Origin: Halochromatium roseum
GTDB lineage: Bacteria > Pseudomonadota > Gammaproteobacteria > Chromatiales > Chromatiaceae
Direction: 5' to 3'
Length of the DNA stretch: 57,609 bases
NCBI RefSeq assembly: GCF_016653315.1
Contig: NZ_NHSH01000011.1
Span: 1-57,609 of the forward strand
Below are positions 14,522-57,446 of the stretch, piece by piece. Position 1 is the stretch's first letter; each line of letters begins with the position of its first letter. Both the position numbers and the translations under genes were made by a program. The notes below the pieces were generated by a model, which had not been told where the DNA came from, ran no database searches, and saw only the letters and a list, made by a program, of their open reading frames with translations.

Positions 14522-14838
14522 TGTCTGGGGCTCTTTACCTCCGAGCAGTGCTGGCGGAAACTCGGCGGTAAAGAAGCGGCAGCGCTATGACGCGGATCAA
14601 GTGGCGCGAGAACACTGGACGGGGAAATCCTGCATAATCCCGCGCTTTCCCGCCGCGACCTAGGGGAAACCAAGCCGGCGCATGGCTTCGCCACATCGCG
14701 ATGCCACGCAGCATAAAGTCCCATCCAGAGGCGCATTCCTGATCGCACTGATGGCCCAATCGAACAGGTCTCATCGGCGCCGACCACGCAGCGTTCAGCG
14801 TTCAGTGGGCCGGCATCGCCCAACCAGGGGAATCGAGC
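14522..14838. other. Intergenic region
   Basis: No supported gene. A 7-bp tandem repeat GCGTTCA GCGTTCA lies at 14791-14804. The promoter of the following gene must lie here, but no box is convincing. Confidence 0.4.
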
Positions 14839-15624
14839 ATGCAATACGACAGTCACCTCTATCAGATCCTGGCCCCAAACCCGGCTCTAGTCGCCTCCCA
14901 ACTCGACCCTGAAGCCTTCGCCAGGCATTACACCGCCGGCTCTGTGCGCTACTACGCGGGCAAGGTCGTCTTCGCCGAGATCGACATCCAGTATCGGCAT
15001 CCCTATTTCAAGATCGACGAGGGCCTCGCGGCACTCAAGCCGCATCCCGATGGCAAGCCCAAGGCGACCATCTTTCTCTCGACATATCGCGTCCTCGAGC
15101 ATATCGACTTGGACGCCATCAAACGGGTGTTTCTCAGCACGCCGGAGGGCTACACCTTAGCGCTCGACAGCGCACCCTATGACAAGACGCACGAAGAAGG
15201 CTTCCTACGCATCTACGCCGAGATCGCGCCGCTGCGCATGCTGGTGATGTCACGCCTCGACTTCCCAGCGTTCGGCAAGTACATCACCGACCCCACCTTT
15301 CCCAAGGGCGCGCCGAAACAGTTCTACACCCAGATCGAGCTCGATATCGAGCACTTCCTCGAAGAGTTCGAGGAGCGCCCGACCATGCATCCGCCAATCC
15401 CTGGCCTGCATCCATCGAACCTGCGAGCGGCGATCATGGGACTACGCTCCGACCCCGATAAGCAGAGCAAGGGCCTTCGGCTCGACAGCGCCTTCGAGAC
15501 CATCCCTTACAAGCTCATTCGCCACGGTTTCATGTTCGCCTCTCAGGAGTCGACCCGCTTCTTTCCAATGCCCTCTCGGGCGGAGATCGAGGCGACCAAC
15601 TATCGCTTCTGGCGCGCTATGTAA
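14839..15624 (+). CDS. Conserved-looking protein of unknown function
   Basis: 261 residues starting MQYDSHLYQILAPNPALVAS. I do not recognise the family. It is soluble, with no signal peptide or membrane helix, and has alternating strand and helix stretches (YYAGKVVFAEIDIQYRHPYF; ATIFLSTYRVLEHIDLDAIK; MLVMSRLDFPAFGKYIT). The C-terminal half has IPGLHPSNLRAAIMGL and ends FMFASQESTRFFPMPSR. Codon use and length look like a real gene. The AGGGGAATCGAGC upstream offers a ribosome-binding site. It stands alone between a terminator and hppA, with a 157-bp gap to hppA. Confidence 0.7.
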   Translation: MQYDSHLYQILAPNPALVASQLDPEAFARHYTAGSVRYYAGKVVFAEIDIQYRHPYFKIDEGLAALKPHPDGKPKATIFLSTYRVLEHIDLDAIKRVFLSTPEGYTLALDSAPYDKTHEEGFLRIYAEIAPLRMLVMSRLDFPAFGKYITDPTFPKGAPKQFYTQIELDIEHFLEEFEERPTMHPPIPGLHPSNLRAAIMGLRSDPDKQSKGLRLDSAFETIPYKLIRHGFMFASQESTRFFPMPSRAEIEATNYRFWRAM

Positions 15625-15714
15625 GGGGCTGTATCGCGGCGTCATTGCACATGCAAGGCGACCCGACGCATGGACTGCTCAGTGCAACAGGCTGAGCCAG
15701 CCCACGTTGCCCTA

Positions 15715-15752
15715 GAGAGCAACACTAGAGCAACACTAGATAACAACACTGA
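15715..15752. repeat. Short direct repeat upstream of hppA
   Basis: AGAGCAACACT-AGAGCAACACT-AGATAACAACACT: an 11-bp unit twice, then a degenerate third copy, in the hppA leader. Confidence 0.7.
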
Positions 15753-15781
15753 CTTCGAGCGAGAGGGAGAACCATCTAGCC

Positions 15782-17803: not shown

Positions 17804-17829
17804 CCCCAACGAGGGCGTCGCCACCCGTC

Positions 17830-19659: not shown

Positions 19660-19704
19660 AGGCCAGCAGCCACTCGGCACGGAGCGCGGGCGAGAGAGAT
19701 CCTC

Positions 19705-20490: not shown

Positions 20491-20494
20491 GCCG

Positions 20495-22975
20495 TTAGTC
20501 CGACTTGCGTAACAGATGCCGCCCGAGCCAGAACAGCGCAACGCCCATGAGGATGCCGCCGAGTAAGAGCGCCAGCGAGCGCATATCGGCACGCCCCAAG
20601 AGCTGGAGCAGGCCCTGAGAGAACAGCGCCATCGCCATCACCGCTGGCGCCATGCCGACTAGGGTACCGATCAGATAATCGCGGAACCGAACCTGAATCG
20701 CCCCAGCGATCAGATTGAGGATGGCGAAGGGCGCCACGGGCACGATTCGCAGCACCACGACCGTAAAGATGCCGCGCTTCGCCAAACGCTGGCGCAGGTC
20801 GCTAAGCCGTCCGCCGAGACGCTTCTCAGCCGTGCCAGCGCCGGTGAAATGGCCGATCTGATAGCCAGCAACAGCCGCGAGCACCGAGCCTCCAAGCGCA
20901 ATCAAGGCGCCGGGCAATGGATCGAACACCAAGGTGGTAACCAGGATCAACAGCGTCACCGGAACCGCCGCCACGCTTGCGACCACAAAGAGGCTAAGCG
21001 CGACCGGTACACCCCACAGCGAGTGAGTCAGCGCCCGAGCCGCCTCGGCCAGTTGCTGTGGCTCTAGCCAGTCGCCCACCGGCGTCCAGCGCCACAGCGC
21101 CGCGAGGACCAGAAATGCAAGCAACAGGCCAACGCCGAGCAGCGCGCGCCAGCGAGCATGCGGCTGGTGCTCCTCACCGACGACGACATCGCCAACCCAG
21201 TCTGGAGCCAGCGGGCGGTCCGGATCGATCAGTCGCTCGTCAGGGACTTGCCGATCCCATTCGGGATCGATGCTCGGTTCGAGGCGACGCAATCGCAAAT
21301 CTGGGCGGGTCTGGTTTCGAGACGAGCCCTCAGTCTCTCCATCAGCGCGATCAGCGCCGCGATCAGGCCGGCGGTCGGCGCCAATACCGCTCTGGCTGGC
21401 GAGGGCATCGCGCTGCGACCCATCAGCTTCCGCTTCCGCTTCCGCTTGCTCTTCCGCTTGCTCTTCCGCTGCCGCTGCCGCGTTGACGCCAGCCTCACCG
21501 CCGTCGACCAACTGGGCGAGCGCTCCAGCGAGGCCCATCGCCGCCGAACCCTTGCCGTTGGTGACCGAGCGCCGGCATTCGGCCTCCACAGCCGCAAGGG
21601 TCTCAGGGTCAAGCGATAGGAACATCGCGAGCAGGCGCCGACGCAGACGCTGGATCTCTGTGCGTGCGGCCTCGGTGTCGCCAATCAGGCAGAGGTCGCA
21701 CTCGCTATCGAGCCCCATTGAGCGGTTGCTGAGATTTGACGACCCAATCCGCAGCACGCGGTCGTCGATGATCATCAGCTTCGCGTGCACCATGAGGCAC
21801 TTGTCGCCAAGCCCAGGCAGGTCCGGATAGTAACAATGCAACCGGCCATGCCGATCTGCGGCGCGCAGTCTCTCGAGGATACGCGCGCGAATCAGGTCCA
21901 TCGTATGCTGCTCGAGCCAATGGCCGGTCTCGCGCGGCAGAATGATCAGGATCAGCGGACCTTCCGGCTGCGCCAAGCAGCGCTCCAGTGCCTCGGCGAC
22001 CGATCGCGAGGTGAGGTACTGATTCTCGATATAGATCAGGTCTCGAGCCGCGGCGATCATGTCCAAGTAGAGCTGCTCGGACTCGCGAACCTCGGCACGC
22101 CCGTCAAACAGCGGCAGGGTGCGTGCAATGCCAACCGCCTGCTCATGCAAGAACGGCTCAAGCTCCGCCGGCCAGGCGTCATCGGCGGCGCCATCATCAC
22201 CCGTGCCGCCATCATCACACGCACAGCCATCACCACCCGTGCCGCCATTAGAAGCCTCGACATCAGCCGCCCCAACATTGGCTGTTGCCGCCTTTGTGCC
22301 CGAATGCAGCACCTGCGGAACCTCACCCCCCGCCCGCTCCCAACGCTCAGCAAAAAGCTGCAAGAGCGCGCTTGCCGCATCGCCGTCGACCAGCAGCTGC
22401 AGATCGTGGAACGGTGGGTAAGGATCACCGCTGGGATCGCGCCGGCGCGGCTCATCGGCACGATGGGCCTCGGTATCCCAACGCCATTTGCTGATATCGA
22501 AGCCACCACACCAGGCCAAGGCGCCGTCGATCAGCACCAGCTTTTGATGTTGGCTCGCCATCAACGGATGCACGTCGTCGAGGATGAAGTGCAGACGCGG
22601 ATGGCGCTTGTCCGCATCCTTGTGCCAGGGCACCTCCCCAAAGAACAGCGGCTCACGCTCGAGCGCATAGATCGGCGCGTAGTCCCAGAGCAGGATGAAG
22701 ATTTCCAGCTCGGGGCGAACCTCGAGCAAACGCAGCAGCAGATCCCCAAACGCGGTTGGCCAGCCGTCTTGCGGATCAGGACGCACCAGCTCGAGCTGAC
22801 TGTGAAGATCCCAAGCCGTGATGGCGATGAACCGACGCGCTGCGATCAGACTCTGGCGCAGCATGCCGAAATAGCACTCGCCATCGACACAGAGACCGAC
22901 CCGCCGCGCAGTCTCTACCCGCCAGCAGTTGCGCCCAGCAACCAGCCGCAGATCAGTCGTTGTTGATGCTGTCAT
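20495..22975 (-). CDS. Phospholipase D-like protein fused to a VTT/DedA membrane domain
   Basis: 826 residues from the ATG at 22975 (MTASTTTDLRLVAGRNCWRV). An upstream ATG at 23011 is possible. Two PLD HKD motifs are present, HQKLVLIDGALAWCGG (about 155-170) and HAKLMIIDDRVLRIGSSN (about 395-412), so it should hydrolyse or transfer phosphodiesters, cardiolipin-synthase style. The C-terminal 220 residues carry several membrane helices with the VTT/SNARE-associated pattern (ILVTTLVFDPLPGALIALGG; GRLSDLRQRLAKRGIFTVVV). Two low-complexity inserts are unusual: an Asp/Gly/Ala stretch near 250-290 and an AAAAEEQAEEQAEAEAEAD stretch near 515-535. It forms a unit with the downstream endonuclease/phosphatase gene. 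Confidence 0.9.
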   Translation of the reverse strand: MTASTTTDLRLVAGRNCWRVETARRVGLCVDGECYFGMLRQSLIAARRFIAITAWDLHSQLELVRPDPQDGWPTAFGDLLLRLLEVRPELEIFILLWDYAPIYALEREPLFFGEVPWHKDADKRHPRLHFILDDVHPLMASQHQKLVLIDGALAWCGGFDISKWRWDTEAHRADEPRRRDPSGDPYPPFHDLQLLVDGDAASALLQLFAERWERAGGEVPQVLHSGTKAATANVGAADVEASNGGTGGDGCACDDGGTGDDGAADDAWPAELEPFLHEQAVGIARTLPLFDGRAEVRESEQLYLDMIAAARDLIYIENQYLTSRSVAEALERCLAQPEGPLILIILPRETGHWLEQHTMDLIRARILERLRAADRHGRLHCYYPDLPGLGDKCLMVHAKLMIIDDRVLRIGSSNLSNRSMGLDSECDLCLIGDTEAARTEIQRLRRRLLAMFLSLDPETLAAVEAECRRSVTNGKGSAAMGLAGALAQLVDGGEAGVNAAAAAEEQAEEQAEAEAEADGSQRDALASQSGIGADRRPDRGADRADGETEGSSRNQTRPDLRLRRLEPSIDPEWDRQVPDERLIDPDRPLAPDWVGDVVVGEEHQPHARWRALLGVGLLLAFLVLAALWRWTPVGDWLEPQQLAEAARALTHSLWGVPVALSLFVVASVAAVPVTLLILVTTLVFDPLPGALIALGGSVLAAVAGYQIGHFTGAGTAEKRLGGRLSDLRQRLAKRGIFTVVVLRIVPVAPFAILNLIAGAIQVRFRDYLIGTLVGMAPAVMAMALFSQGLLQLLGRADMRSLALLLGGILMGVALFWLGRHLLRKSD

Positions 22976-23062
22976 CGCTCGACGCACCTGACCCCCGGCA
23001 GCCGATACCACCTTGAGCCAGAGGCGCTGCCTCCAAGACTCTTTTACCCTGAGATCCGACTG

Positions 23063-23629: not shown

Positions 23630-23640
23630 GGTCGATATCC

Positions 23641-23680
23641 TCTGGTGTGTTCTGGAGAGTTCTGGAGAGTTCTGGTGTCT
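23641..23680. repeat. 10-bp tandem repeat in leader
   Basis: Units of GTTCTGGAGA and close variants (TCTGGTGT, TTCTGGAGAG, TTCTGGAGAG, TTCTGGTGTC), about four copies directly upstream of the secreted-protein gene. Confidence 0.8.
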
Positions 23681-23896: not shown

Positions 23897-24451
23897 ATGT
23901 GCATCACGTCTGTGCATCGCGTCGATGCTGGGCTGCGCATCAGCTTCGTCAGCGCAGAGTGGCTCGCGTTCGCCGCCGAGAACGGTCGTGAAACGACCGC
24001 AGCTGCAGAACTGGGCCGGCCGTTGTTCTCAGTCATCGTTGACGAGGAGACGCGCCACATCTACCGGCTCCTGATCGAACGCGCACGCGCAACAGGCGAG
24101 GTATTGCAATTTGGCTACCGCTGCGACTCGCCGGACTGCCGCCGCTGGATGCAGATGCAGATGCGCTATCTCGCCGATAGCGACGAGGTCGAATTCGCGA
24201 GCCGGTTGCTGCGCGCTGCGCCAAGGCCCTACATGCCGCTGGTGGCGGCTCACCGAAGCCGGCAGACGACACCGCAGGTATTGTCGATGTGCAGCTGGTG
24301 CAAGGCGGTTCTGGCCGAGCAGGCCTGGGTTGAGGTGGAACAGGCCGTGAAGCAACTGCATCTATTCGCCGCGGATGCCATGCCACGGATTACCCACGGC
24401 ATCTGTCCCGACTGCAGCAAACGTTTGTTATCATTGGAGTCTTCGTCATGA
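23897..24451 (+). CDS. PAS-like sensor protein with Cys4 motif
   Basis: About 184 residues from the ATG at 23897 (MCITSVHRVDAGLRISFVSA). The start is uncertain, since a TTG/ATG at 23846-23849 would add 17 residues. The first 110 residues are PAS-like (ISFVSAEWLAFAAENG..LGRPLFSVIVDEETRHIYR..GYRCDSPDCRRWMQMQMRYL). The C-terminus has MCSWCKAVL...W-VEVEQAVKQL...MPRITHGICPDCSKRLL: two CxxC pairs likely to bind a metal. This Cys-rich tail accompanies response regulators and sensors in purple sulfur bacteria and deltaproteobacteria. It overlaps the next gene by 4 bp (ATGA), so the two are translated together and probably act together. No kinase domain. Confidence 0.7.
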   Translation: MCITSVHRVDAGLRISFVSAEWLAFAAENGRETTAAAELGRPLFSVIVDEETRHIYRLLIERARATGEVLQFGYRCDSPDCRRWMQMQMRYLADSDEVEFASRLLRAAPRPYMPLVAAHRSRQTTPQVLSMCSWCKAVLAEQAWVEVEQAVKQLHLFAADAMPRITHGICPDCSKRLLSLESSS

Positions 24452-24807
24452 GAATCCTCGTTGTGGACGACAATCGGTTGCTCGCGACCATTCTCGCCGA
24501 TCATCTGATTGCGCGCGGCCATGAGGTCGTCGCTGCCTTCGATGGCCACCTCGCGGAGATCTTCTGTGACCGTGATGGCTATGATCTGCTGGTGATCGAT
24601 ATGGTATTGCCCGAGATCGACGGCGTTGATCTGCTCGAACGTCTGCGCCGAAAACATCACAATTGCCACGTCATCGTCATCACCGGCTTCGCGGAACTGC
24701 ATGAGAGAGAGACCGATCGACTCAAACTTCTTGATGTTGCGGCCGTCCTAGAAAAACCGTTTTCATTCTCCGACGTCGACGCCATTGTCGAGCGCATTGC
24801 GGCCTAG
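24448..24807 (+). CDS. Single-domain response regulator
   Basis: 119 residues, receiver domain only. The acidic pair Asp7-Asp8, the phosphoacceptor Asp51 (DLLVIDMVLPEIDG), a Thr in VIVITGF and Lys in LEKPFSF are all in place, so it should be phosphorylated by a histidine kinase. There is no output domain, so it acts by protein-protein contact (CheY/Spo0F style). The start overlaps the stop of the preceding PAS/Cys4 gene, pointing to a functional pair. The cognate kinase is not in the window. Its stop lies within an 8-bp tandem repeat. Confidence 0.93.
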   Translation: MRILVVDDNRLLATILADHLIARGHEVVAAFDGHLAEIFCDRDGYDLLVIDMVLPEIDGVDLLERLRRKHHNCHVIVITGFAELHERETDRLKLLDVAAVLEKPFSFSDVDAIVERIAA

Positions 24808-24822
24808 CGGCCTAGCGGCCAA
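24799..24822. repeat. 8-bp tandem repeat across the stop codon
   Basis: GCGGCCTA GCGGCCTA GCGGCCAA: three units, the first containing the response-regulator stop TAG. Confidence 0.85.
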
Positions 24823-27979: not shown

Positions 27980-27981
27980 CG

Positions 27982-38142: not shown

Positions 38143-39945
38143 ATGAAATTCCCCTACGGCACCGCCGATTTCCACGCCATTCGCCGCGAAGGCTACTACT
38201 ACGCCGATCGCACCGACCGTATCCGCACGCTGGAGGAAGCGGGCAAGCAGCTGCTGTTTCTGCGACCGCGCCGTTTCGGTAAGACCGCCTGGCTGACCAC
38301 GCTGGAGAACTACTACGACCTCGCCCGGGCGGCGGAATTCGACGCGCTGTTTGGGCCGCTGGCCATCGGCCAGAACCCCACCGCGCGGCGCAACCAGTAC
38401 TTCGTGCTGCGCTGGGACTTTTCCATGGTCGATGCCAGCGGCAACCTGGCCGAGATTCGCCAGGCGCTGCATGATCACCTCAATAGCCAAGCCAAAGGCT
38501 TTTTGCTGCATTACCGCACCCAGCTTGGCAGAACCGATTTCGGTTCCTCAGAGTTTGGGTTGCGTGAAGACAATGGCCTGGTCGCTCTGGCATCAGTTGT
38601 CAATGTCGCGCGTGCGAGCGGCCATGATCTCTATCTGCTGATCGACGAGTACGACAACTTCGCCAATGAGCTGATGCACGGGCGCCGAGCGGATTATGAC
38701 GCCCTGGTCTCCGGCGAAGGCCTGCTCAAAACGCTCTTCAAGGCGGTCAAATCCCTGGCGTCGGGCCAAGGTATCGATCGGGTCTTCATCACCGGGGTTT
38801 CGCCGGTGGTGCTGGCGGACATCTCCAGCGGCTACAACGTCTCAGAAAACATCAGCTTGGATGCGCGCTTCGTGGATTTATGCGGCTTCAGCGAAGCCGA
38901 GATTGCGGCCGTGCTCGGCCAGCTCGCCGCCGAGCAGCAACGCGACCGGGATTGGTCAGCGCGTATGCTCGAGACCATGCGGGTCTGGTACAACGGCTAC
39001 CGATTCGGCTACGAGCCCGGCCCGGGTCTCTATAATCCCACCCTGGCGCTGTACTTCTTCAAGGCCCTAGCCACCACCGGCGCACCGCCGCGCGAGATGC
39101 TCGATAGCAACCTGGCCATGGATCGCAACCGCATCGACTTCGTCGCCCGCCAGCCGCATGGGCAGGAACTCATCGGTGCCGCGCTTGATCCCGAGCATCC
39201 GCCGGTGATCGCCAGCCTGGCGCACCGCTTTGGGGTCGAAGACCTGCGTCGCGCGCCTCGGGATGCGCCTTATCTCGGCTCGCTACTGTATTTTCTCGGG
39301 GCGCTGACGCTCAGGGACCAGACCCCCTTCGGTGAACTGGTGCTGGGTATTCCAAACCTGGTCATCCGCAAGCTCTATGTCGAGAAATTCCGTGATCAGC
39401 TGTTTCCCAACTACCCCGAGCGCGAAAGCCTCACTCAGGCCGCCAAGGCCCTGTACGCGAAGGGCGAACTCGCCCCCTTGGTCGAGTTACTGCAAGCCAA
39501 CCACCTGCGCGTGTTCGACAACCGCGATTACCGCTGGTCCAACGAGCTGACCGTCAAGACCGTCTTTCTCATCGCCCTGTTCGCCGACATCTTCTATGTC
39601 ATGGACTCCGAGACCGCCATCGCGCGCGGCCATGCCGATCTCTCGCTGATCGTGCGCGAGGAGATGCGCCGCTTTGCGCTGCTCGATCACCTGTTCGAGT
39701 TCAAATACCTGAGCCTTCAGGAACTCGGCGAGACCGCGGAGACCCTGCGCGCGCAGTCGCGCGAGGCGCTCATGGCCCAGCCCAAGGTCGCCGCCTGCCT
39801 GGATGCGGCCGAGGCCCAGCTGGCCCGCCACCGCCAAGGTCTGGAGCAGGCCTATGGCAAGCGCCTGCGTCTGCACACCCATGCCGTGGTCGCGCTTGGG
39901 TTTGAGCGCCTGCTGTGGCGGAGCTCCCCGGCTGCGCCGGCGTGA
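38143..39945 (+). CDS. AAA-ATPase-like / PD-(D/E)XK nuclease-like protein
   Basis: 600 residues of the AAA-ATPase_like + PDDEXK_9 family, numerous in Bacteroidetes, spirochaetes and purple sulfur bacteria. The N-terminal KFPYGTADFHAIRREGYYYA and DRTDRIRTLEE, Walker A-like LFLRPRRFGKTAWLTTLENY, and Walker B-like DLYLLIDEYDNFANELM are present. FITGVSPVVLADISSGYNVS and WYNGYRFG follow. The C-terminal part has HADLSLIVREEMRRF and FEFKYL, fitting a PD-(D/E)XK core (D...E-x-K). The biological role of the family is unknown; mobile-element or defence links have been suggested. It is a solitary gene here. A long AT-poor stretch with strong codon bias supports a real gene. Confidence 0.9.
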   Translation: MKFPYGTADFHAIRREGYYYADRTDRIRTLEEAGKQLLFLRPRRFGKTAWLTTLENYYDLARAAEFDALFGPLAIGQNPTARRNQYFVLRWDFSMVDASGNLAEIRQALHDHLNSQAKGFLLHYRTQLGRTDFGSSEFGLREDNGLVALASVVNVARASGHDLYLLIDEYDNFANELMHGRRADYDALVSGEGLLKTLFKAVKSLASGQGIDRVFITGVSPVVLADISSGYNVSENISLDARFVDLCGFSEAEIAAVLGQLAAEQQRDRDWSARMLETMRVWYNGYRFGYEPGPGLYNPTLALYFFKALATTGAPPREMLDSNLAMDRNRIDFVARQPHGQELIGAALDPEHPPVIASLAHRFGVEDLRRAPRDAPYLGSLLYFLGALTLRDQTPFGELVLGIPNLVIRKLYVEKFRDQLFPNYPERESLTQAAKALYAKGELAPLVELLQANHLRVFDNRDYRWSNELTVKTVFLIALFADIFYVMDSETAIARGHADLSLIVREEMRRFALLDHLFEFKYLSLQELGETAETLRAQSREALMAQPKVAACLDAAEAQLARHRQGLEQAYGKRLRLHTHAVVALGFERLLWRSSPAAPA

Positions 39946-40146: not shown

Positions 40147-40494
40147 GCTGCGAGCCTATGGCGGTAGAGAGGTCGGTTGGGCGCGGCCTCGACATGAGGT
40201 CGCGTGATGTTGCGACGTAGCAAGAAGAGGCTCGCGCAGAGACGCAGTGGCGCAAAGGAAGAAAGCGCTTGCTCGATGTTCCCAGTGCGCCTCTCTTGCC
40301 CTTCACTTCTTCACTTCTTGACTTCTTCACTTCTTCTATGCGCCTTTGCGTCTCTGCGCGAGATGTCTTTTTCTTGTATCGTCTCCGCGATATGGCACCG
40401 TCAGATTAACATGATGCGGAGGCCGCACCCGGTCGGTTCGTCTTTAAGCTGATTGGAGGCCGATCTTCAGACTGCTCGCTAGGAACATAACCCA
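40147..40494. other. Intergenic region with long inverted repeat
   Basis: No gene supported. It contains an inverted repeat (see 40231-40363) with a CTTCTTCACTT-type tandem tract in its centre, and the nadE ribosome-binding site (AGGAA at 40481). Confidence 0.6.
40231..40363. repeat. Inverted repeat element with tandem core (MITE-like)
   Basis: Left arm CTCGCGCAGAGACGCAGTGG then CGCAAAGG, right arm (reverse complement) CTCGCGCAGAGACGCAAAGG. The arms match for 16 bp, and the left one has an extra AGTGGCGC. The ~85-bp interior carries repeats of CTTCTTCACTT/CTTCTTGACTT (about 40301-40336). The arm CGCAGAGACGCAAAGG is a string I associate with dispersed repeats in environmental proteobacteria. 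No transposase. Confidence 0.7.
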
Positions 40495-42609
40495 TTGAGC
40501 GATTTCTTCAACCTCTATCAGCAAGGCCTGGTCAGGGCCGCCGTCTGCGTCCCCGAGGTGCGGATCAGCAACCCGCCCGCCAATGCCGAGGCGACCATCG
40601 CCCTCGCCCGTCGCGCCCACGAGGCCGGCGCGCTCATCGCCCTGTTTCCGGAGCTTGGGCTCACCGCCTACAGCAACGACGACCTCTTCCATCAGCACAC
40701 CCTGCTCGATGCCGCCCTTGCGGCACTTGCTCAGGTGGTCGAGGCCAGCCGCGCGCTGCGACCGCTGATCGCGGTTGGGCTGCCGCTGCGCATCGATGGG
40801 CGCCTGTTCAATTGCGCGGTCGCCATCCATGCAGGCCGCATCCTTGGGGTGACGCCGAAGTCCTATCTACCGAGCTATCGCGAGTTCTACGAGAAGCGCC
40901 AGTTTGCCGCCGCCGATACCCTGCTCAGGCCTGAGACCGAACTGCTCGACCAACTCGTCCCAATCGGTACTGACCTGCTGTTCGAGGCCAGCACCCTGCC
41001 CGGCCTGGTTCTCCACATGGAACTCTGCGAGGACCTCTGGGCACCGATCCCGCCCAGCACCTACGCCGCCATGGCCGGCGCGACGGTCCTGCTGAATCTG
41101 TCCGCGAGCAATATCACCATCGGCAAGGCACGCTACCGCAATGACCTCTGCGCCGCGCAATCCGGCAAATGCATCGCCGCCTATCTCTACTCGGCCGCGG
41201 GTCCTGGCGAGTCGACCACCGATCTGGCCTGGGACGGCCATGCCCTGATCTTCGAGCAGGATCGGCTGCTGGCCGAGTCCGCGCGCTTCCCGCATGCCGA
41301 GCAGATGATCACGGCCGACATCGATCTGGAGCGCCTGCAACAGGAGCGCCTGCGCGCGACCAGCTTCAGCGACAGTATCCGCGCCGAGCGTGAGCGCCTG
41401 CAACCGATGCGCCGGGTGCGCTTCAGCCCCGAGTTGCCAAGCGGCGATCTCGGCTTGCAGCGGTCGATCGCGCGCTTCCCCTATGTGCCGGCCGAGAGCG
41501 CCGAGCGCGACGCGCAGTGCTACGAGGCCTACAACATCCAGGTCCATGGTCTCGCCCAGCGCCTGCGCGCCACCGGAATCCAGCGCATCGTGATCGGCAT
41601 CTCCGGCGGGCTGGATTCAACCCAAGCCCTGTTGGTCGCCGCGCGCACCATGGACCGGCTTGAACTGCCACGCGGCAATATCCTCGCCTACACCCTGCCC
41701 GGCTTCGCCACCAGTCAAGAGACCCGCGCCAACGCCCACGCGCTGATGCAGGCGCTCGGCACAACCGCCGAGGAGATCGACATCCGGCCGTCCTGTCGGC
41801 AGATGCTCGCCGATCTGCGCCATCCCTTCGCCGAGGGCGAGCCGGTCTATGACGTCACCTTCGAGAACGTGCAAGCTGGTGAGCGGACCTCGCACCTGTT
41901 TCGACTCGCCAACCACCACAACGCGCTGGTACTCGGCACCGGCGACCTCTCCGAGATCGCGCTTGGCTGGTCCACCTACGGCGTCGGCGACCAGATGTCG
42001 CATTACAACGTCAATGCGTCGGTGCCCAAGACCCTGATCCAGTACCTGATCCGCTGGGTCATCGCTAGCGACCAGTTCGACGCCCACACCAACGCCTTGC
42101 TGCAAGCGATCCTCGACACCGAGATCTCGCCCGAGCTGGTGCCGGCCGATGCCAAGATGGCAAGCGCTGATGCGCATGCGGCAACGGCCGATGCGCATGC
42201 GGCAACCGGGATATCCACAGCCAGCGGCCTACAGAGCACCGAGGCCAAGATCGGCCCCTACGAACTGCAGGATTTCAACACCTATTGGATCAGCCGCTAC
42301 GGCCTGCGCCCGAGCAAGGTCGCCTTTCTCGCCTGGCATGCCTGGCACGACAAGACCCAAGGCCAGTGGCCCGAGAACCTGCCCGAGGCAGGCCGCCACC
42401 AATACGACCTCGCCGAGATCAAGCACTGGCTTGAAGTGTTTCTGTTCCGCTTCTTCCAGACCAGTCAATTCAAGCGCAGCTGCATGCCGAACGGCCCCAA
42501 GGTCGGCTCCGGTGGTTCGCTCTCGCCGCGGGGCGACTGGCGGGCGCCTAGCGATGCCGAAGCAAGGATCTGGCTTCAGGAGCTACGCGAGAACGTACCT
42601 GATCTTTGA
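40495..42609 (+). CDS. nadE: Glutamine-dependent NAD+ synthetase
   Basis: 704 residues from a TTG start at 40495, with AGGAA 10 bases upstream. The N-terminal nitrilase-like glutaminase has Glu53 ([15 protein letters not shown]), Lys ~122 ([18 protein letters not shown]) and Cys ~177 ([14 protein letters not shown]), producing ammonia. The C-terminal synthetase has the ATP loop [13 protein letters not shown] and [20 protein letters not shown]. It makes NAD+ from deamido-NAD+. A duplicated seven-residue insert (ADAHAAT twice) plus flanking Ala/Ser residues sits between LVPADAK and IGPYELQDF, lengthening the protein by about 25 residues over the family. Confidence 0.95.
42166..42207 (+). repeat. 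21-bp tandem duplication inside nadE
   Basis: GATGCGCATGCGGCAAC occurs at 42169-42185 and again at 42190-42206, period 21, in frame, encoding ADAHAAT twice. Confidence 0.9.
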
Positions 42610-42615: not shown

Positions 42616-42699
42616 AGCATGGGAGGTCATCAGCATGGAAGGTCATTGGGGATCACCCCGTCTCGATGATTCGTTCTTATGCTTATGCTTATGCTTATG
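42616..42699. repeat. Two tandem repeats downstream of nadE
   Basis: A 16-bp unit AGCATGGGAGGTCATC / AGCATGGAAGGTCATT (42616-42647), then a hexamer CTTATG repeated four times (about 42676-42699). Confidence 0.85.
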
Positions 42700-44477: not shown

Positions 44478-44717
44478 ACGGAGGTAACGGAGGTTTATCA
44501 GGACTCTAATAGAGGTGATCAGGCTGGAAGGTGATCAGGCTGGAATCAGTGAACGGCCAGCAGACGCCCATCATAGCTGATCCGCGCCACCGGGATCAGC
44601 GCCAACTCAGGATGCCCAACTCAGGATGCCCGTTGCGAAAGCAACCCTCGAGCCTTAAATCACCGACACAACGGCAGCCACGACGCTCTTGACCCATCGA
44701 CGATCTTGACCCATCGG
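44478..44717. repeat. Cluster of four short tandem duplications
   Basis: ACGGAGGT twice (44478-44495, imperfect spacing); GTGATCAGGCTGGAA(G/T), 16 bp, twice (44515-44546); CAACTCAGGATGCC, 14 bp, twice (44603-44630); CTTGACCCATCG with spacer, 17-bp period (44688-44717). All lie in the divergent intergenic region between the lipoprotein and DUF938 genes. Confidence 0.85.
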
Positions 44718-44741: not shown

Positions 44742-45347
44742 ATGATGAACAAACCCTTCTCTCCTTCCAGCGAAGAGAACAAGCAGCCGATCCTTGAGGT
44801 CATCGCACCCAGGTTGGCATCAGCAAGCTCGGTCCTCGAGATTGGCAGCGGCACCGGTCAGCACGGCGTCCACTTCGCCACTGCCTTGCCGCAGTTGCGC
44901 TGGCAATGCACCGATGTGGCCTATCACTTGCCCGGAATCAGGCTGTGGATCGAGGAGGCAGGACTGCCAAACCTACCTACCCCGCTAGAACTCGACGTCG
45001 ATGCCGACTGGATCGACGCGTTCAGCGGCACTGACTATGACGCGATTTACAGCGCCAATACCGCGCACATCATGTCACTGGCACAGGTTGAGCGGATGTT
45101 TACCGGCGTTGGCGCACTGCTGCCGCGCCAAGGCCTATTCATACTCTACGGCCCCTTCAGCCTCGATGGCCAGCACAATAGCGAGAGCAATGCCTACTTC
45201 GACCGCTCACTGCGCCTGCGCGACCCCCTCAGCGGTGTACGCGACCGCCGCGACCTCGAGCACTTTGCCGCTGCCGCCGGTCTTTCACTGGAGGCCGATA
45301 TCGCCATGCCAGTCAACAATCGTACCTTGGTCTGGCGCCGGAGCTAG
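44742..45347 (+). CDS. DUF938-family SAM-dependent methyltransferase-like protein
   Basis: About 201 residues from the ATG at 44742 (MMNKPFSPSSEENKQPILEV). The Rossmann motif I SSVLEIGSGTGQHGVHFATA binds S-adenosylmethionine. DYDAIYSANTAHIMSLAQVE and the terminal VNNRTLVWRRS are DUF938 hallmarks. The substrate of the family is not known. A TTG at 44706 would add 12 residues within a repeat and is less likely. Confidence 0.88.
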   Translation: MMNKPFSPSSEENKQPILEVIAPRLASASSVLEIGSGTGQHGVHFATALPQLRWQCTDVAYHLPGIRLWIEEAGLPNLPTPLELDVDADWIDAFSGTDYDAIYSANTAHIMSLAQVERMFTGVGALLPRQGLFILYGPFSLDGQHNSESNAYFDRSLRLRDPLSGVRDRRDLEHFAAAAGLSLEADIAMPVNNRTLVWRRS

Positions 45348-45601
45348 AGCATCGACGGAGCTAGAGCATCGACTCTGAGCTAGACATCGACGCATCGACG
45401 ACCAAGGGGCCAAGGGGCCAAGGGGCGGGGCGGCTGAGCGACCAACCGTCAGTTGATCGAACAGGCCGCATTGGAAACGATCCGATCCCGGGACGCTCAG
45501 GTTCCGGGTCGACTGTTCGAGGTTGGTGCGTTTGAGGTCGGCTTGAGTTGAGTTCGACTCAAGTTCGACACAGGTAGATCGTCAATCCAGATCGTCAATC
45601 A
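45341..45601. repeat. Tandem repeats in the DUF938-hsp20 intergenic region
   Basis: GAGCTAGAGCATCGAC about three times (45341-45390, the first copy containing the DUF938 stop TAG), CCAAGGGG three times (45402-45425), and AGATCGTCAATCC twice (45576-45601). The whole 45348-45678 stretch has no supported gene. Confidence 0.85.
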
Positions 45602-45678
45602 AGGCTTGGCTCAAACGCTTGCCGGGCCGACTGACGATCTGACGATCGCCGTGCGGATCACTGGACCGCTCATTGAGG

Positions 45679-47455: not shown

Positions 47456-47522
47456 CGCTGGACCTCAGTCAGGCTGGATGGATAGCAACCGCAAGGATCT
47501 GTGTCTCTCTGTGCCGGAAAGC

Positions 47523-47576
47523 GCCTAACGCCTTGTAACGCCTTGGGCAAACCTCACACTTGGGCAAACCTCATAA
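47523..47576. repeat. Tandem repeats at the prfC 3' end
   Basis: TAACGCCTTG twice (47526-47545), then TTGGGCAAACCTCA twice (47543-47574), ending inside the prfC stop region. Confidence 0.8.
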
Positions 47577-49151: not shown

Positions 49152-49345
49152 GATCTCTAGCTGCCTGGGTTGGCGCGTCGCAAAACCGGTTAGTGTAACC
49201 GAGGCTTGGCTCCGGCAGCATCAGAACCTGACGATTTCAAAGCCCGCCGGCTCCGCCCTGCCCCTTACTTGAACCGGTGCCCGGATCACCGCCCTCGCTG
49301 CCATCCCGATCACTGCACGTGCTAGTGTATGAATTGGCCCTCAAG

Positions 49346-51103
49346 ATGTGCGAATCCATGCCACTCAGCCTACCCATTAGCCTGCCCATTAGCCTGCCCA
49401 TTAGCCTGCCCATTAGCCTGCCGATTAGCCTGCCCATTAGCCTACCGGCCTTCGATCCGTTCACCGAGCTAGCGCTGCTACTGGTCCTCGCGGCGGCAGC
49501 CGGCGCGCTCGCGGTGCGACTGCGCCAGCCGGTCTTGATCGCCTACATCATCGTCGGTATCGCGGTTGGGCCGGCTGGGTTCGAGCTGGTGAAATCGCAC
49601 GATCAGGTCAGCGTGCTGGCACAGATCGGCGTCTCGGTGCTGCTGTTCGTCGTTGGGCTCAAGCTCGATCTGACGCGCGTGCGCGACATCGGTAAGGTGG
49701 CGCTGGCGACCGGCCTGGGCCAGCTCGCCTTCACCATCGTCTTTGGCTTCGTGCTCATCCTGGCGCTCGGTAAAGGCGTGGTCGAGGCGCTCTATATCGC
49801 CGTCGCCCTGACCTTCTCGAGCACCATCATCATCGTCAAGCTGCTCTCCGACAAGGGGGAGCTGGATGCCTTGCACGGGCGCATCGCGATCGGCTTCCTG
49901 ATCGTGCAGGACATCGCCGTGGTGGTTGCGATGATGGCGATGAGCGCGCTCGGCGCCGGTGGCGACGCACCGGTCTGGGAGATCGCCGTCTCGCTCGCCG
50001 CCCGCATCCTCGGCGCGGCGCTGCTGATGTTCCTGCTCATGCGTTATCTGATCCCGCCGCTGCTGCGCAGCATGGCGCGCTCGCAGGAGCTGCTGCTGAT
50101 CTTCGCCATCGCCTGGGGCACCGGGCTGGCGGCGCTCGGCGAATGGGTCGGCTTCTCCAAGGAGGCCGGTGCCTTCCTGGCCGGATTCTCGCTCGCCTCC
50201 ACCGTCTACCGCGAGGCGATCAGCGCACGCCTGAGCGGTATCCGTGATTTCCTCTTGCTCTTCTTCTTCGTCGACCTGGGCGCCGAGCTCGATTTCTCAA
50301 CCCTGGGTGCCGAGATCTTGCCGGCCATCCTGCTCTCGCTCTTCGTGCTCATCGGCAATCCGTTGATCGTCATGACCATCATGGGCGTGATGGGCTACCG
50401 CAAGCGCACCGGTTTCCTGGCCGGCCTGACGGTGGCGCAGATCAGCGAGTTCTCGATCGTCTTCATCGCCATGGGCATTGGACTCGGCCACATCGGCGTC
50501 CAGGCGCTTGGGGTGACCACCCTGGTCGGCATCGTCACCATCACCCTGTCGACCTATATGATCCTGTATTCGCAGCCGTTGTATCGGTTGCTGGCGCCGC
50601 TGCTCGGCGTCTTCGAGCGGCGCACGCCCTTCCGCGAGATCGCCGCCGAGGCGCAGGTTTCAGCGGATCTGCGCCCACAGGTGTTGGTCCTTGGCCTCGG
50701 CCGCTATGGGCTGCGCTTGGCGAAGCGTTTGAGCGCTGCGGACATGCGCGTGCTCGGGGTTGATTGTGACCCTGATCTGGTGCGCCATCTCACGCAAGAC
50801 GAACTCCCGGTCTGCTTTGGCGACGGCCATGACCCCGCCTTTCTCGACACCTTGCCGCTGGATGGCTTGCAATGGGTGATCAGCACCCTGCCGGATATCG
50901 ACTCGAATCGGATGCTGCTGCAGGCCTTGGCGGAGCGCCGCTTCAACGGCGAGATCGCCGTGGTCGCACGCGACGAGGCCCGCGGCGCCCAGCTCTGGCG
51001 TGCCGGTGCGCCGATCATCCTCTACCCGTTCCGCGATGCGGTGGATTTCGCCGCTGATAACATCATCGACATCCAGCGCAAACGCACCGCTGAAGGCCGC
51101 TAG
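49346..51103 (+). CDS. CPA2 cation:proton antiporter with TrkA-N domain (KefB/C-like)
   Basis: About 585 residues. Twelve or so membrane helices follow FDPFTELALLLVLAAAAGAL. LTFSSTIIIVKLLSDKGELD and GFLIVQDIAVVVAMMAM (with the transport Asp), and FSKEAGAFLAGFSLASTVYR, are CPA2 signatures. A C-terminal Rossmann TrkA-N domain starts at QVLVLGLGRYGLRLAKRLSA and binds NAD(H), as in KefB/KefC. It likely moves K+ or Na+ in exchange for H+. The start is taken at 49346 (MCESMPLS). GTG at 49277 and ATG at 49358 are alternatives. The N-terminus contains (LPIS) six times before the first helix. The end overlaps the convergent usp gene by 4 bp. Confidence 0.9.
   Translation: MCESMPLSLPISLPISLPISLPISLPISLPISLPAFDPFTELALLLVLAAAAGALAVRLRQPVLIAYIIVGIAVGPAGFELVKSHDQVSVLAQIGVSVLLFVVGLKLDLTRVRDIGKVALATGLGQLAFTIVFGFVLILALGKGVVEALYIAVALTFSSTIIIVKLLSDKGELDALHGRIAIGFLIVQDIAVVVAMMAMSALGAGGDAPVWEIAVSLAARILGAALLMFLLMRYLIPPLLRSMARSQELLLIFAIAWGTGLAALGEWVGFSKEAGAFLAGFSLASTVYREAISARLSGIRDFLLLFFFVDLGAELDFSTLGAEILPAILLSLFVLIGNPLIVMTIMGVMGYRKRTGFLAGLTVAQISEFSIVFIAMGIGLGHIGVQALGVTTLVGIVTITLSTYMILYSQPLYRLLAPLLGVFERRTPFREIAAEAQVSADLRPQVLVLGLGRYGLRLAKRLSAADMRVLGVDCDPDLVRHLTQDELPVCFGDGHDPAFLDTLPLDGLQWVISTLPDIDSNRMLLQALAERRFNGEIAVVARDEARGAQLWRAGAPIILYPFRDAVDFAADNIIDIQRKRTAEGR
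49369..49446 (+). repeat. 12-bp tandem repeat in the antiporter N-terminus
   Basis: CCTGCCCATTAG repeated six times with single-base variants, plus a partial seventh, in frame, encoding LPIS repeats. Confidence 0.95.
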
Positions 51104-52080: not shown

Positions 52081-52168
52081 TGATCCGCGCCTCGGTAAAG
52101 GATGCGTGTCTTGGCTAACAGTCGCTTCGCCAAGTCTCTCGGTCCAGCCTCAAGCAATCCAGCCCCAA

Positions 52169-52247
52169 GATAAACGATAAACGGGACTCAAGCAGGCGTG
52201 CGCCATCTGCTGTTCATCCTGTTGACAACATCTTGTTGACAACATTC
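52169..52247. repeat. Tandem repeats upstream of the Hen1-like gene
   Basis: GATAAAC twice (52169-52182) and TGTTGACAACATCT / TGTTGACAACATTC, 14 bp twice (52220-52247). The second contains two copies of TTGACA, a -35-like hexamer. Confidence 0.8.
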
Positions 52248-52297
52248 TAGCCTCGAAGGGCATAGTGAACCTTCATTGAACCCCATCGTTGACATTG

Positions 52298-52948: not shown

Positions 52949-53081
52949 CATCACACCGCTGAAAGCCACCCCATCCTTGCCCTGCCATCATCACCAATCG
53001 TTTGCGTCCGCGCAGCGGATACAACAAGATCCATTGGAGAATAGCCATTAGAGCGACATACAGTCGACTTGGCTCACGATG

Positions 53082-56000: not shown

Positions 56001-57446
56001 ATCAATAGACTCTTGCGTCTCAGAAGCCGATAATCCGCTGTCGAGTGAGGCCATTGCATCACTGGGTAGAGGCTCAAGCGCCTCCTCAATTCCATCCAGT
56101 TGCGCGAGCCCCCTTTGCAGACCAAGCAGCGAGAGTCGCACTCCACCTTGCAAGGAGATCCGCTCGTTCTCTAGCTCGGCGAGCTCTTGGCTCACAGCCT
56201 GATCAGTCTTATCGCGATACGCTTCTTCAAAACGTTGCGCTTCACTGAGCTGTTCTTGTTGTTCGCGCATCGCTGTCAGCGCCGTTTCCGCCTCGGCAAC
56301 AGATTGCTGGATACGCTCAAGATGGGTCTGGAGGATCTGTAATTGCTCGCGATTCGCCTTCTGAGACGCAACGAGACGCTCACGCAGTGCTTCGAGTCGT
56401 TGTGACTGCTGACTGAGCAGGCTTTCTGTTAAGAATGGCGGGACTTCCTCCTTGAAGGTTCCATCCGCGACTCGTAGATCGATCTCTAGCACGATGACGT
56501 GGAGTCTTCGCAACGCAAGAGAGAACGCCTCTGCGGCTTGTTGAGTCACCTCATTTTGCGCCATGACCTGCTCAAGGATCTCGATCTGTCGACTGATATC
56601 CTTAACTTGGTTCTGATAACCCTCAAGCTGCTGCTCAGCGTCGGCGATGCTAAGCTGTTCTTGGATTTGCGGGCCTTGTACAGCCATTGCCAATCCTGTG
56701 GCTCCTGGGGCCTCCGTATCGGACGCTACCGCATCTTCCAGGATAACGACCGGTTGCTGTTCAATCGATTGCAGATAGATTTTGTTAGCTTGCTCAGCCT
56801 GTCGATATAAAGTCCTCAGCTGTTGTAATAGCCGCCGCTTGGCATTAAAGCGGTTTTCCTCTTGACGGTAGATTTCCGTAGCTTGTTTTAATAGCTCTTC
56901 ATTGCTGAGCTCATGATATCCTGACTCAAGGCTAGCAACTTGTAATGGCAAAGAGAATATTTTTTGCGTTGTTTGAGCTGATTGCGTTGTTTGAGCTGAC
57001 TCGCTTGGTTCGCTTGACTCGCCCAACTCACCTGATACACCTGATTCGTCTGATTCGTCTGATTCGTCTGATTCGTCTGATTCGCTTGGTTTGCCTGATC
57101 CGCCTGACCCGTCTGATTCGCTCGACTCGCCTGATTCGCCTGATTTACTCGTCGAATCCAACTCATCAGTCGAATTCACCTCCCCACCTGAACGCCCCTG
57201 AAAGAACCCTTTAATATCCTCAATCGCTGATACATCGATATATGGACTAACATCAAGATCATTTTCACGCTGGAACTGCCGAATTGTTCTGATGGTCTGC
57301 GCACCCAGCAGTCCATCAACTGAGTCAATAATATAGCCATCATCCAAGAGTAGTTGCTGAACGACTCGAATCTCTTCTCTGGTAGGTTCCTCCTGTGCCA
57401 TGACACTCGTCTGGATGCTAAAAAACAGAAACATCAGACAAGCCAT
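53082..57446 (-). CDS. Giant MscS-family channel with peptidoglycan-binding-like and coiled-coil domains
   Basis: 1454 residues. Signal peptide 1-17 (ends SVMA-QEEP). Then a peptidoglycan-binding_1-like module (REEIRVVQQLLLDDGYIIDS, VDGLLGAQTIRTIRQFQREN, about 23-62) and a Ser/Asp/Glu/Gly linker (about 85-160) from 9-bp repeats. A very long coiled-coil periplasmic region (about 180-1150) rich in Gln/Glu/Leu follows. Membrane helices start about 1165. The MscS pore and beta domain (ILAGLGIGGFAIAIAAKETL; VERPFRIGDIIQISND; RTTRIANVMNYNITMPNSRV) runs to about 1400. It resembles MscK/YnaI-type large channels, with a wall-binding head that could sense envelope strain. Sequence is AT-richer than the neighbours. 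Likely an osmotic safety valve. Confidence 0.9.
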   Translation of the reverse strand: MACLMFLFFSIQTSVMAQEEPTREEIRVVQQLLLDDGYIIDSVDGLLGAQTIRTIRQFQRENDLDVSPYIDVSAIEDIKGFFQGRSGGEVNSTDELDSTSKSGESGESSESDGSGGSGKPSESDESDESDESDESGVSGELGESSEPSESAQTTQSAQTTQKIFSLPLQVASLESGYHELSNEELLKQATEIYRQEENRFNAKRRLLQQLRTLYRQAEQANKIYLQSIEQQPVVILEDAVASDTEAPGATGLAMAVQGPQIQEQLSIADAEQQLEGYQNQVKDISRQIEILEQVMAQNEVTQQAAEAFSLALRRLHVIVLEIDLRVADGTFKEEVPPFLTESLLSQQSQRLEALRERLVASQKANREQLQILQTHLERIQQSVAEAETALTAMREQQEQLSEAQRFEEAYRDKTDQAVSQELAELENERISLQGGVRLSLLGLQRGLAQLDGIEEALEPLPSDAMASLDSGLSASETQESIDALKALITGYESRLVELNGYEERLAEIAELTEVVKAETGILQEHLKKMRLLAELLGTRGAALGKDVDLDRIAQYNASIQESVQEIDAISQGVTEQSAALETRLEEIRLAHVKANQRLADLEQTLASARQAQEWQQELTELDGEGLIARFVSDAETLVAQRQTLDEQRQVIGELSEQAAALRKTIDTFTDPLVKMSDASVQQEKQRIQETLYDLSGLESPATSGAPLATVQPNAEASAAADETKADSEESEQKQVTEQEVVDVQQPGSGGLSADVAGLKAFQNLLSTRQQNGQARQEDRTQLIEVLNALEKAQAEFIDALSEIHRLSLQQYATAVELKKQLGRGDLAPEQAPEGLIGALAKAPIEALEAELKELINRRSHVRLRLSRLAAEDPAQTERDELAETLQSLVGQRLDLLADIQRLEDERTTDQEQLTEGERQRLEQQAENRMRAGSGFLESALGFLPSERAEELTELMRSHYQELVMVESKQALLATEQEKVAYLLQLVRDDQQTVSDYLPMLRAQLKALEREQEGAWVRLRAQFQPDEAEKLLADYAERTGQQLELAPAILEQDRAEFVEEASNQLLSHHAQMLALQQWIALFEQRQVDTLVREIALYQEREGEISALDLALQRQVKRLLGHTDEELAALAESQRPSTQLEKAYFLEGELGVEHEQRTQARLRALLKVVVEILVIIGFAWLLIAGVKRLVDRKVRDLEMSGAPESTHTLFALSFGFAAFRILVLVLAFMLVLSSLGFNIGVILAGLGIGGFAIAIAAKETLSNLIGGITLFVERPFRIGDIIQISNDIKLGETEFGRVESVSWRTTRIANVMNYNITMPNSRVAESAIINYTHQMPLRDFTHVYVSPAYDVRKVLLLITAAVDECQLIRQDMQKQILAVGTEVAGEIVLTKYEVRWYTDVTYIARARVLTEFWDRISQKFSASGVPLEYIARRSTVEPKSDSSNRDVPNALLERER
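56960..57140 (-). repeat. 9-bp and 18-bp repeats in the MscS gene
   Basis: A 9-bp unit (plus strand GATTCGTCT and variants) repeats through 57041-57140, giving SESDESDES-type protein. An 18-bp direct repeat TTGCGTTGTTTGAGCTGA/T (about 56966-57000) gives SAQTTQ twice. Confidence 0.85.

What the first reader, a model, noticed from the sequence alone, without database searches (positions are those of the whole stretch)
14791..57140. Genome region rich in short tandem duplications
More than twenty places carry direct tandem repeats of 7-21 bp, mostly two exact copies: 14791, 15715, 23641, 24799, 40301, 42166, 42616, 42676, 44515, 44603, 44688, 45341, 45402, 45576, 47526, 47543, 49369, 52169, 52220, 57041 (also 5572 and 8335). 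They are both intergenic and in frame in genes, some spanning stop codons. Short-range duplication seems unusually active or poorly repaired here.
Basis: seen in the sequence. Interest (0 to 1): 0.7.

Follow-up and report, generated by a model that had tools for sequence, protein, structure and literature searches.

The report
Genus-wide excess of ~12-bp tandem duplications
A halophilic purple sulfur bacterium and its closest relatives carry many more exact side-by-side copies of short DNA stretches (mostly about 12 letters) than the other bacteria compared, most likely because DNA copying slips backwards unusually often there; the responsible gene is not known.

Summary
The repeats are real. 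All 22 listed places carry a tandem pair of at least 80% identity, and 15 contain exact copies. The window holds 9 perfect arrays of period 10 or more, against 0 to 0.7 in Markov models.

This is not a property of the region. It is genome-wide and seen in the best-sampled members of the genus, a Halochromatium-like group of Chromatiaceae. In samples of 8 same-genus genomes, noncoding DNA holds 111 perfect arrays (period 10-25) in 254.7 kb; samples of 15 other family genomes hold 10 in 253.9 kb, about 11-fold less.

Unit lengths of perfect arrays peak at 11-13 bp. Units are nearly all unique, often flanked by a partial copy, spread evenly over intergenic DNA and not tied to hairpins. In genes, 44 of 50 are multiples of three. 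Relatives often carry fewer copies at the same place.

Best reading: a raised rate of backward slippage at short matching stretches. No culprit was found: MutS, MutL, PolA, RecJ, ExoVII and ExoI are present in this genome; Ku and PolB were not found. The closest published analogue met is the tandem repeats of archaeal Borg elements.

The parts
14789..14805 (.). 7-bp unit, 2.43 exact copies (near chance level on its own)
15716..15740 (.). 11-bp unit x2.27; about 25 bp shorter in relative G002
21439..21470 (.). 12-bp unit x2.67 inside the PLD/VTT-domain gene; shorter in G002
23649..23675 (.). 10-bp unit x2.7; G002 has 20 bp less at the same place
24799..24820 (.). 8-bp unit x2.75, spans the stop codon of ORF 24448-24807
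40301..40336 (.). 8-bp units, two adjoining arrays, inside a ~250-bp intergenic element that is dispersed in G002 and G007
42159..42208 (.). 21-bp imperfect duplication (length divisible by 3) in the NAD synthase gene
42616..42646 (.). 16-bp imperfect pair just after the NAD synthase gene
42676..42699 (.). 6-bp unit x4
44513..44545 (.). 16-bp unit x2.06; the stretch is much shorter in G007, of similar length but diverged in G002
44602..44631 (.). 14-bp unit x2.14; single copy in G002
44681..44716 (.). 17-bp pair, 94% matches, at the start of the DUF938 methyltransferase ORF
45339..45373 (.). 17-bp unit x2.06 spanning the stop codon of the DUF938 gene
45385..45426 (.). 8-bp unit x2, then another 8-bp unit x3.12
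45576..45600 (.). 13-bp unit x1.9
45631..45647 (.). 8-bp unit x2.12
47526..47545 (.). 10-bp unit x2; a single copy in G007
49373..49422 (.). 12-bp unit x4.17 near the 5' end of the Na/H exchanger ORF; fewer copies in G007, none in G002
52169..52183 (.). 7-bp unit x2.14
52215..52245 (.). 14-bp pair, 94% matches
56964..57145 (-). 18-bp and 9-bp arrays (multiples of 3) within the 1454-aa MscS-family ORF; the gene finder began this gene at 56687 and so counted them as noncoding

Best explanation
This lineage (the genus to which the tools assign the window's genome) has a raised, genome-wide rate of short tandem duplication. The most likely mechanism is slipped-strand DNA synthesis. A nascent 3' end detaches and re-anneals about 8-20 nt (typically 11-13) upstream on a short matching stretch, and the interval is copied twice. 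Further slips then raise or lower the copy number. Duplications persist where they do little harm (intergenic DNA) or keep the reading frame. Shown here: the excess, its presence in several genus members, the 11-13-bp mode among perfect arrays, the locus-unique units, the flanking partial copies, the in-frame filter, the even scatter, and copy-number differences between species. Inferred: that slippage at microhomology is the birth step, that the rate (and not retention) is what differs, and that a property of the replication or repair machinery is responsible.
For: (1) Noncoding perfect arrays of period 10-25: genus 111 in 254.7 kb (8 genomes sampled) against 10 in 253.9 kb (15 other family genomes sampled). 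The 4 of 8 genus genomes with at least 10 kb of noncoding DNA run at 19-54 per 100 kb; the 10 of 15 others with as much run at 0-20 (one-sided rank test P=0.004, relatedness ignored). E. coli K-12 has 0 of period 10 or more in 27.9 kb noncoding, and 74 gammaproteobacterial mutS neighbourhoods have 10 in 252.9 kb. (2) Pooled noncoding spectrum of four genus genomes, observed/Markov-3: 10:7/0.2, 11:19/0.1, 12:28/0, 13:17/0, 14:11/0, 15:10/0. (3) A flanking partial copy of 3 nt or more in 47 of 83 two-copy arrays; 4.2 expected if breakpoints ignored homology and bases were equally frequent. (4) 44 of 50 coding arrays are multiples of 3, against 42 of 111 noncoding (Fisher P=2e-9). (5) 157 distinct units among 161 arrays, and 0 of 71 own arrays have another similar place in the own sample, so this is not one mobile repeat. 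(6) Arrays follow intergenic length: 609/68/8/2 segments hold 0/1/2/3 arrays, against 608/69/8/1 at random. (7) Orthologous sites: e.g. L024:17678 has 2 copies here but 1 in both G002 and G007; window 44602 is single in G002; window 49373 varies in three genomes. (8) Between own and G002, 7 of 22 well-flanked noncoding indels of 6 bp or more are tandem, lengths 8, 10, 12, 13, 13, 13, 14.
Against: No gene that would explain it was found. Only 2 of 16 noncoding indels of 6 bp or more against the more distant G007 were tandem (lengths 6 and 8). The length distribution of all noncoding indels between own and G002 shows no clear second peak: it is roughly level from 4 to 13 (7, 5, 5, 5, 5, 11, 8, 2, 5, 6, then 3 at 14), and I had no control pair for it, so the 12-bp mode rests on perfect arrays alone. 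G003 and G005 showed 0 noncoding arrays, though in only 7.2 and 2.7 kb; one other genus (G040) reached 20 per 100 kb, like G007; G009, low for period 10 or more, has an excess at 7-9 (8, 2, 4 against 0.9, 0.2, 0.1). Partial flanking copies may be decayed third copies and not pre-existing microhomology; 22 of 89 two-copy arrays have none. Simple slippage does not by itself predict a mode at 12. Coding and noncoding were assigned by a home-made gene finder, which miscalled at least the arrays at 56964-57145.
Confidence: 0.55

Rival explanations
1. Staggered double-strand breaks or paired nicks 8-20 bp apart are filled in and rejoined, which duplicates the overhang (a process known from plants and animals; recalled).
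For: It would give a preferred length with a spread, and 22 of 89 two-copy arrays have no partial flanking copy.
Against: It needs end joining, but Ku was found in 0 of 8 genus genomes. Flanking homology of 3 nt or more is far too common (47 of 83). Copy numbers of 3-7 need slippage anyway.
Confidence: 0.12
2. The birth rate is ordinary, but duplications are retained longer or more often in this genus, through weaker selection on intergenic DNA, slow substitution or low deletion.
For: Noncoding DNA is plentiful (92.0 of 457.6 kb in the own sample), and arrays scatter over it at random. The overall indel-length distribution against G002 has no distinct second peak.
Against: Density per noncoding kb is still about 11-fold above the other sampled family genomes, several of which have as large a noncoding share.
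Confidence: 0.17
3. The pairs are target-site duplications left by lost insertion sequences or MITEs (IS4-type elements make 11-13-bp duplications; recalled).
For: The unit-length mode of 11-13 bp. Single copies in relatives are what an empty site would look like, so they do not speak against it.
Against: Lengths run from 8 to 25 without a fixed size, partial flanking copies are common, and arrays reach 7 copies. Relatives with more than 400 bases between the flanks were excluded (600), so large elements between copies would not have been seen.
Confidence: 0.06
4. The repeats are maintained for a function, such as phase-variable switches or regulatory spacing.
For: Copy number differs between species at the same site; some arrays lie at gene ends.
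Against: Little difference between divergent, convergent and co-directional gaps (0.52, 0.42, 0.41 per kb) and a random spread. Units are nearly all unique, and most noncoding arrays have two copies (89 of 111).
Confidence: 0.05
5. Assembly artefact or chance.
For: The own genome and most relatives are drafts.
Against: The excess is seen in four well-sampled separate assemblies of the genus but not in most drafts of other genera. Units of 25 bp or less fit inside a read. Coding arrays mostly keep frame (44 of 50), and three arrays have the same unit in own and G002. Markov models give almost none of period 10 or more.
Confidence: 0.02

Closest known systems
Tandem repeat regions of archaeal Borg elements (PMC9879509; abstract, section 7 and found passages read)
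   Same: Locus-unique units, perfect and recent copies, flanking partial repeats, both intergenic and in ORFs, frame kept in ORFs, rare in the closest comparison genomes, mechanism unknown with slippage suspected.
   Different: Here it is bacterial DNA with housekeeping genes, in several members of a genus. By the Borg criterion (perfect, >=50 nt, >=3 units) the density is 1.8 per 100 kb (9 in 497 kb), against about 5.6 per 100 kb in Borgs (mean 46 per 829 kb, their Table 1). Mostly two copies; GC of units close to background (0.576 against 0.589); no B-family polymerase found.
Bacterial minisatellites/VNTRs and satellites (PMC6749651, found passages read)
   Same: Short tandem units; copy number taken to vary by slippage.
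   Different: That survey requires at least four repeats of 10-200 nt and describes satellite families; here most arrays have two copies, nearly every unit is private, and the trait is a genome-wide density.
Short tandem duplications among small insertions in eukaryotes; slippage mutators such as polA or rad27 mutants (recalled, no paper read)
   Same: Duplications of some 5-100 bp between short direct repeats.
   Different: PolA with its 5'-exonuclease domain is present here; the trait is natural and shared by several species.

Membership tests
Borg-type tandem repeat system | Perfect locus-unique repeats, intergenic and genic | tested here: met
   157 distinct units of 161 perfect arrays; 111 noncoding and 50 coding
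Borg-type tandem repeat system | Genic units divisible by three | tested here: met
   44 of 50; in Borgs all, by the paper
Borg-type tandem repeat system | Flanking partial repeats | tested here: met
   47 of 83 two-copy arrays with 3 nt or more
Borg-type tandem repeat system | Adenine-enriched units | tested here: inconclusive
   Unit GC 0.576 against noncoding 0.589 and no A-rich word among the top both-strand k-mers; adenine on one strand was not measured
Borg-type tandem repeat system | Carried by a linear extrachromosomal element with a B-family polymerase | tested here: not met
   Window genes include Hsp90, RF3 and other housekeeping genes; PF00136 in 0 of 8 genus genomes. Topology was not tested.
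Replication-slippage minisatellite | Copy number differs between relatives at one site | tested here: met
Replication-slippage minisatellite | Copy number varies within a strain or in culture | not testable with these tools
   No reads available
Transposon target-site duplication scars | Element found between the copies in relatives | tested here: inconclusive
   No clear case among 21 of 69 own arrays with orthologous flanks, but sites with more than 400 bases between flanks were excluded
Transposon target-site duplication scars | Fixed unit length and exactly two copies | tested here: not met
   Noncoding periods 10-25 and 2 to 6 whole copies
Ku-dependent end-joining duplications | Ku present | tested here: not met
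   0 of 8 genus genomes

The most novel reading that the evidence does not exclude
The genus is a natural structural mutator. Its replisome makes backward re-priming slips of a preferred length of about 12 nt, close to the length of bacterial RNA primers (recalled). Duplication would then be tied to Okazaki-fragment maturation (a displaced primer-length flap that re-anneals and is kept) and would act as a steady source of new intergenic DNA and of low-complexity protein loops, such as the roughly 60-aa insert in its RecJ.
Probability: 0.1. Interest if true: 0.8.

Novelty: new variant of a known kind. Interest (0 to 1): 0.5.

Why it matters
Slippage is usually thought of as a process of 1-3-nt steps in simple repeats (recalled). 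A group of bacteria in which fresh duplications of about 12 bp litter the intergenic DNA would be a natural system for finding what sets the length and rate of such slips, and for watching how new spacer DNA and disordered protein loops arise. It is also a bacterial parallel to the unexplained tandem repeats of Borgs.

Tried and rejected
Region-specific hot spot: rejected, similar density elsewhere in the genome. Chance and base composition: rejected for period 8 and above. Hairpin-driven events: no support; collapsed sites are if anything slightly less structured than random intergenic windows (-0.121 against -0.132 per nt, P=0.09). Motif-driven: only a weak enrichment of GATC and GATCA (36 against 17.8; 17 against 5.3, both strands counted, so inflated for the palindrome, and many words tested); not pursued. 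Gene-orientation bias: little. Missing repair gene: MutS and MutL were looked for in the window's genome only, RecJ in it and one other genus member, G004; all present. ExoVII is found in 7 of 8 genus genomes (not in G006). ExoI is found in 7 of 8 (G007 has only a weak partial hit). PolA is found in 8 of 8. PolB is found in none of the 8 but in low-rate G010, and Y-family polymerases are patchy. None of these patterns follows the rates. RecJ 'split' match: it proved to be a low-complexity loop insert with the surrounding conserved blocks kept. Rfam scan of the window: no match. A second peak in indel lengths between own and G002: I first read one into, but per length it is roughly level, so it is withdrawn; for that, and because large elements between copies could not be seen, the odds of the best explanation were lowered from 0.60 to 0.55 and those of retention and of transposon scars raised slightly. 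Literature: searches returned no paper and search 55 two unrelated ones; searches gave context. This is absence from those eight searches of one open-access library, not proof.
Full report
OBSERVATION. All 22 carry a tandem pair with at least 80% matches; 13 contain exact copies of a unit of 7 bp or more, 2 exact copies of a 6-bp unit, and 7 are imperfect. The window holds 21 perfect arrays of period 7 or more, against 5.9-8.6 in Markov models of order 1, 2, 3 and 5. For period 10 or more it holds 9, against 0-0.7. Period-7 pairs are at chance level, so items such as 14791 and 52169 carry no weight alone.

NOT A REGION BUT A GENOME AND A GENUS. The window is contig C11 of a 5.17-Mb draft genome. 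Two 200-kb samples from other contigs have 16.5 and 12.0 perfect arrays of period 10 or more per 100 kb, against 15.6 in the window. The first-listed record in a MutS scan of named genomes is Halochromatium sp. A10 (79% identity; a Chromatiaceae MAG follows at 81%), and its contig length (479,522) equals that of contig C11 of G007, which the tool places in the same genus as the window. The organism is therefore a Halochromatium-like purple sulfur bacterium of the Chromatiaceae. Its species was not established.

COMPARISON. I sampled 8 genus genomes (254.7 kb noncoding) and 15 other genomes of the family (253.9 kb noncoding). Coding regions were assigned by a simple codon-usage gene finder written here; it miscalled at least the arrays at window 56964-57145, which lie in a long ORF. 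Noncoding perfect arrays of period 10-25 number 111 and 10. By genome: own 49 in 99.6 kb, G002 29 in 54.1, G001 16 in 33.7, G007 9 in 46.3, G004 7 in 6.8, G006 1 in 4.3, G003 0 in 7.2, G005 0 in 2.7. Others: G009 1 in 20.2, G010 0 in 22.9, G011 2 in 31.3, G021 1 in 28.0, G033 0 in 4.8, G034 0 in 3.1, G036 1 in 26.9, G040 3 in 15.0, G041 0 in 20.3, G045 1 in 26.9, G046 1 in 27.7, G049 0 in 6.2, G055 0 in 5.4, G062 0 in 2.0, G066 0 in 13.2. The rank test used only the 4 and 10 genomes with at least 10 kb of noncoding DNA and ignores relatedness (P=0.004). E. coli K-12 has 0 of period 10 or more in 27.9 kb noncoding. Seventy-four gammaproteobacterial mutS neighbourhoods have 10 in 252.9 kb, 8 of them in the middle GC bin. 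Six mutS loci of close Chromatiaceae were set aside from that control (L083-L086, L089, L094): L085 and L086 have one noncoding array each, the two Thiohalocapsa loci L089 and L094 have three in 3.9 kb noncoding, and L083 and L084 have none. The trait may thus reach beyond the genus.

ANATOMY. In noncoding DNA of the four best-sampled genus genomes (own, G001, G002, G007), observed/Markov-3 counts are 6:115/59.9, 7:38/14.8, 8:22/4.2, 9:17/1.4, 10:7/0.2, 11:19/0.1, 12:28/0, 13:17/0, 14:11/0, 15:10/0, 16:2, 17:4, 18:1, 19:3, 21:1, 25:1, 28:1. Period 6 is about twofold over the model in low-rate G010 too, so it is not part of the trait; G009 has an excess at 7-9 but only one array of 10 or more up to 19. 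Of 161 arrays in the genus sample 157 have distinct units; three pairs are orthologous between own and G002, and one pair lies within G002. None of 71 own arrays has a second similar place in the sampled own DNA. Of 111 noncoding arrays 89 have two whole copies, 17 three, 3 four and 2 six. Forty-seven of 83 two-copy arrays continue into a partial copy of 3 nt or more, against 4.2 expected without homology. Arrays are spread over intergenic segments as random placement by length predicts, show little orientation bias and are not associated with hairpins (90 arrays).

SELECTION FILTER. Inside genes 44 of 50 arrays have a period divisible by three, against 42 of 111 outside. Duplications therefore seem to arise without regard to frame and to be filtered. 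A low-complexity insert of about 60 residues in this genome's RecJ, absent from the four relatives aligned with it, looks like a product of repeated in-frame duplication; this is an inference.

RELATIVES AT THE SAME SITES. Of 102 own arrays of period 8 or more, 25 have both flanks in the G002 sample, 21 in G007 and 5 in G001. The relative is shorter by most of a unit or more in 12, 12 and 2, the same in 8, 8 and 3, and longer in 5, 1 and 0 (some of these sites align poorly between the flanks). With stricter flanks, 21 of 69 own arrays, 14 of 43 G002 arrays and 4 of 19 G007 arrays could be compared. Clear cases: L024:17678 (two copies here, one in G002 and G007), window 44602 (one in G002), window 23649 (an imperfect 10-bp pair in G002, two units longer here), L168:11715 (longer in G002, not here), window 49373 (different copy numbers in three genomes). 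Shared arrays without change also occur (for example L024:6088 and L024:17996 in G002). Over the aligned part (93.7 kb against G002), 7 of 22 well-flanked noncoding indels of 6 bp or more are tandem, against 1512 noncoding mismatches; against G007 only 2 of 16 are. All noncoding indels between own and G002, unfiltered, number 62, 25, 15, 7, 5, 5, 5, 5, 11, 8, 2, 5, 6, 3 for lengths 1 to 14: after a fall to length 4 the numbers stay roughly level, with no distinct second peak. The 12-bp mode therefore rests on the perfect arrays.

MECHANISM. Microhomology-primed backward slippage explains locus-unique units, partial flanking copies, later copy-number change and random placement. It does not by itself explain the preferred length of about 12. 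Staggered breaks with end joining would give a length window, but Ku was found in 0 of 8 genus genomes and homology at the edges is common. Target-site scars of lost transposons do not fit the range of lengths, the partial copies or the higher copy numbers, although single copies in relatives are neutral on this point and sites with large inserts were not examined. In the window's genome MutS, MutL, PolA, RecJ, ExoVII and ExoI are present; RecJ and PolA look whole by eye. A B-family polymerase was found in none of the 8 genus genomes. DnaE, DnaN, DnaG, SSB, ligase and RNase H were not examined.

KNOWN COMPARISONS. The closest published pattern I met is the tandem repeats of Borg elements (PMC9879509; abstract, section 7 and selected passages read): unique, recent, perfect, flanked by partial repeats, in frame in genes, nearly absent from host chromosomes, with mechanism open. 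Differences are the carrier, lower intensity (1.8 against about 5.6 per 100 kb under their criterion), and no B-family polymerase. A survey of prokaryote satellites (PMC6749651, passages read) uses at least four repeats and would miss most of these arrays.

VERDICT. A genus-level excess of ~12-bp tandem duplications is well supported; slippage as cause is likely; the responsible change is unknown.

Noticed in passing
window 40178-40434: Intergenic element of about 250 bp with dozens of 74-97% matches (many of them partial) across relatives G002 and G007, but no second copy in the 497 kb own sample; it holds the CTTCACTT arrays. No match among plasmids and none in the Rfam scan of the window.
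   Followed up: partly
window 57470-57609: The last 140 bases match nine places in G002 and G001 at 85-92%, so a dispersed repeat probably begins at the window's end.
   Followed up: no
L182:17156-18928 (RecJ of the window's genome): RecJ carries a low-complexity insert of about 60 aa rich in Ala, Asp, Ser and Arg that four aligned relatives lack; the conserved blocks around it are kept.
   Followed up: partly
window 38143-39945: AAA-ATPase_like/PDDEXK_9 gene with many related places in the genus (6 matching pieces in the own genome, 18 in G002, 22 in G007, fragments counted).
   Followed up: no
L089 and L094: Two Thiohalocapsa mutS neighbourhoods hold 4 perfect arrays of period 12-15 in 30.6 kb, suggesting the trait may reach beyond the genus.
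   Followed up: no
G009 sample (L077-L080): This genome of another genus has few arrays of period 10 or more but an excess of noncoding arrays of period 7-9 (8, 2 and 4 against 0.9, 0.2 and 0.1 expected).
   Followed up: no
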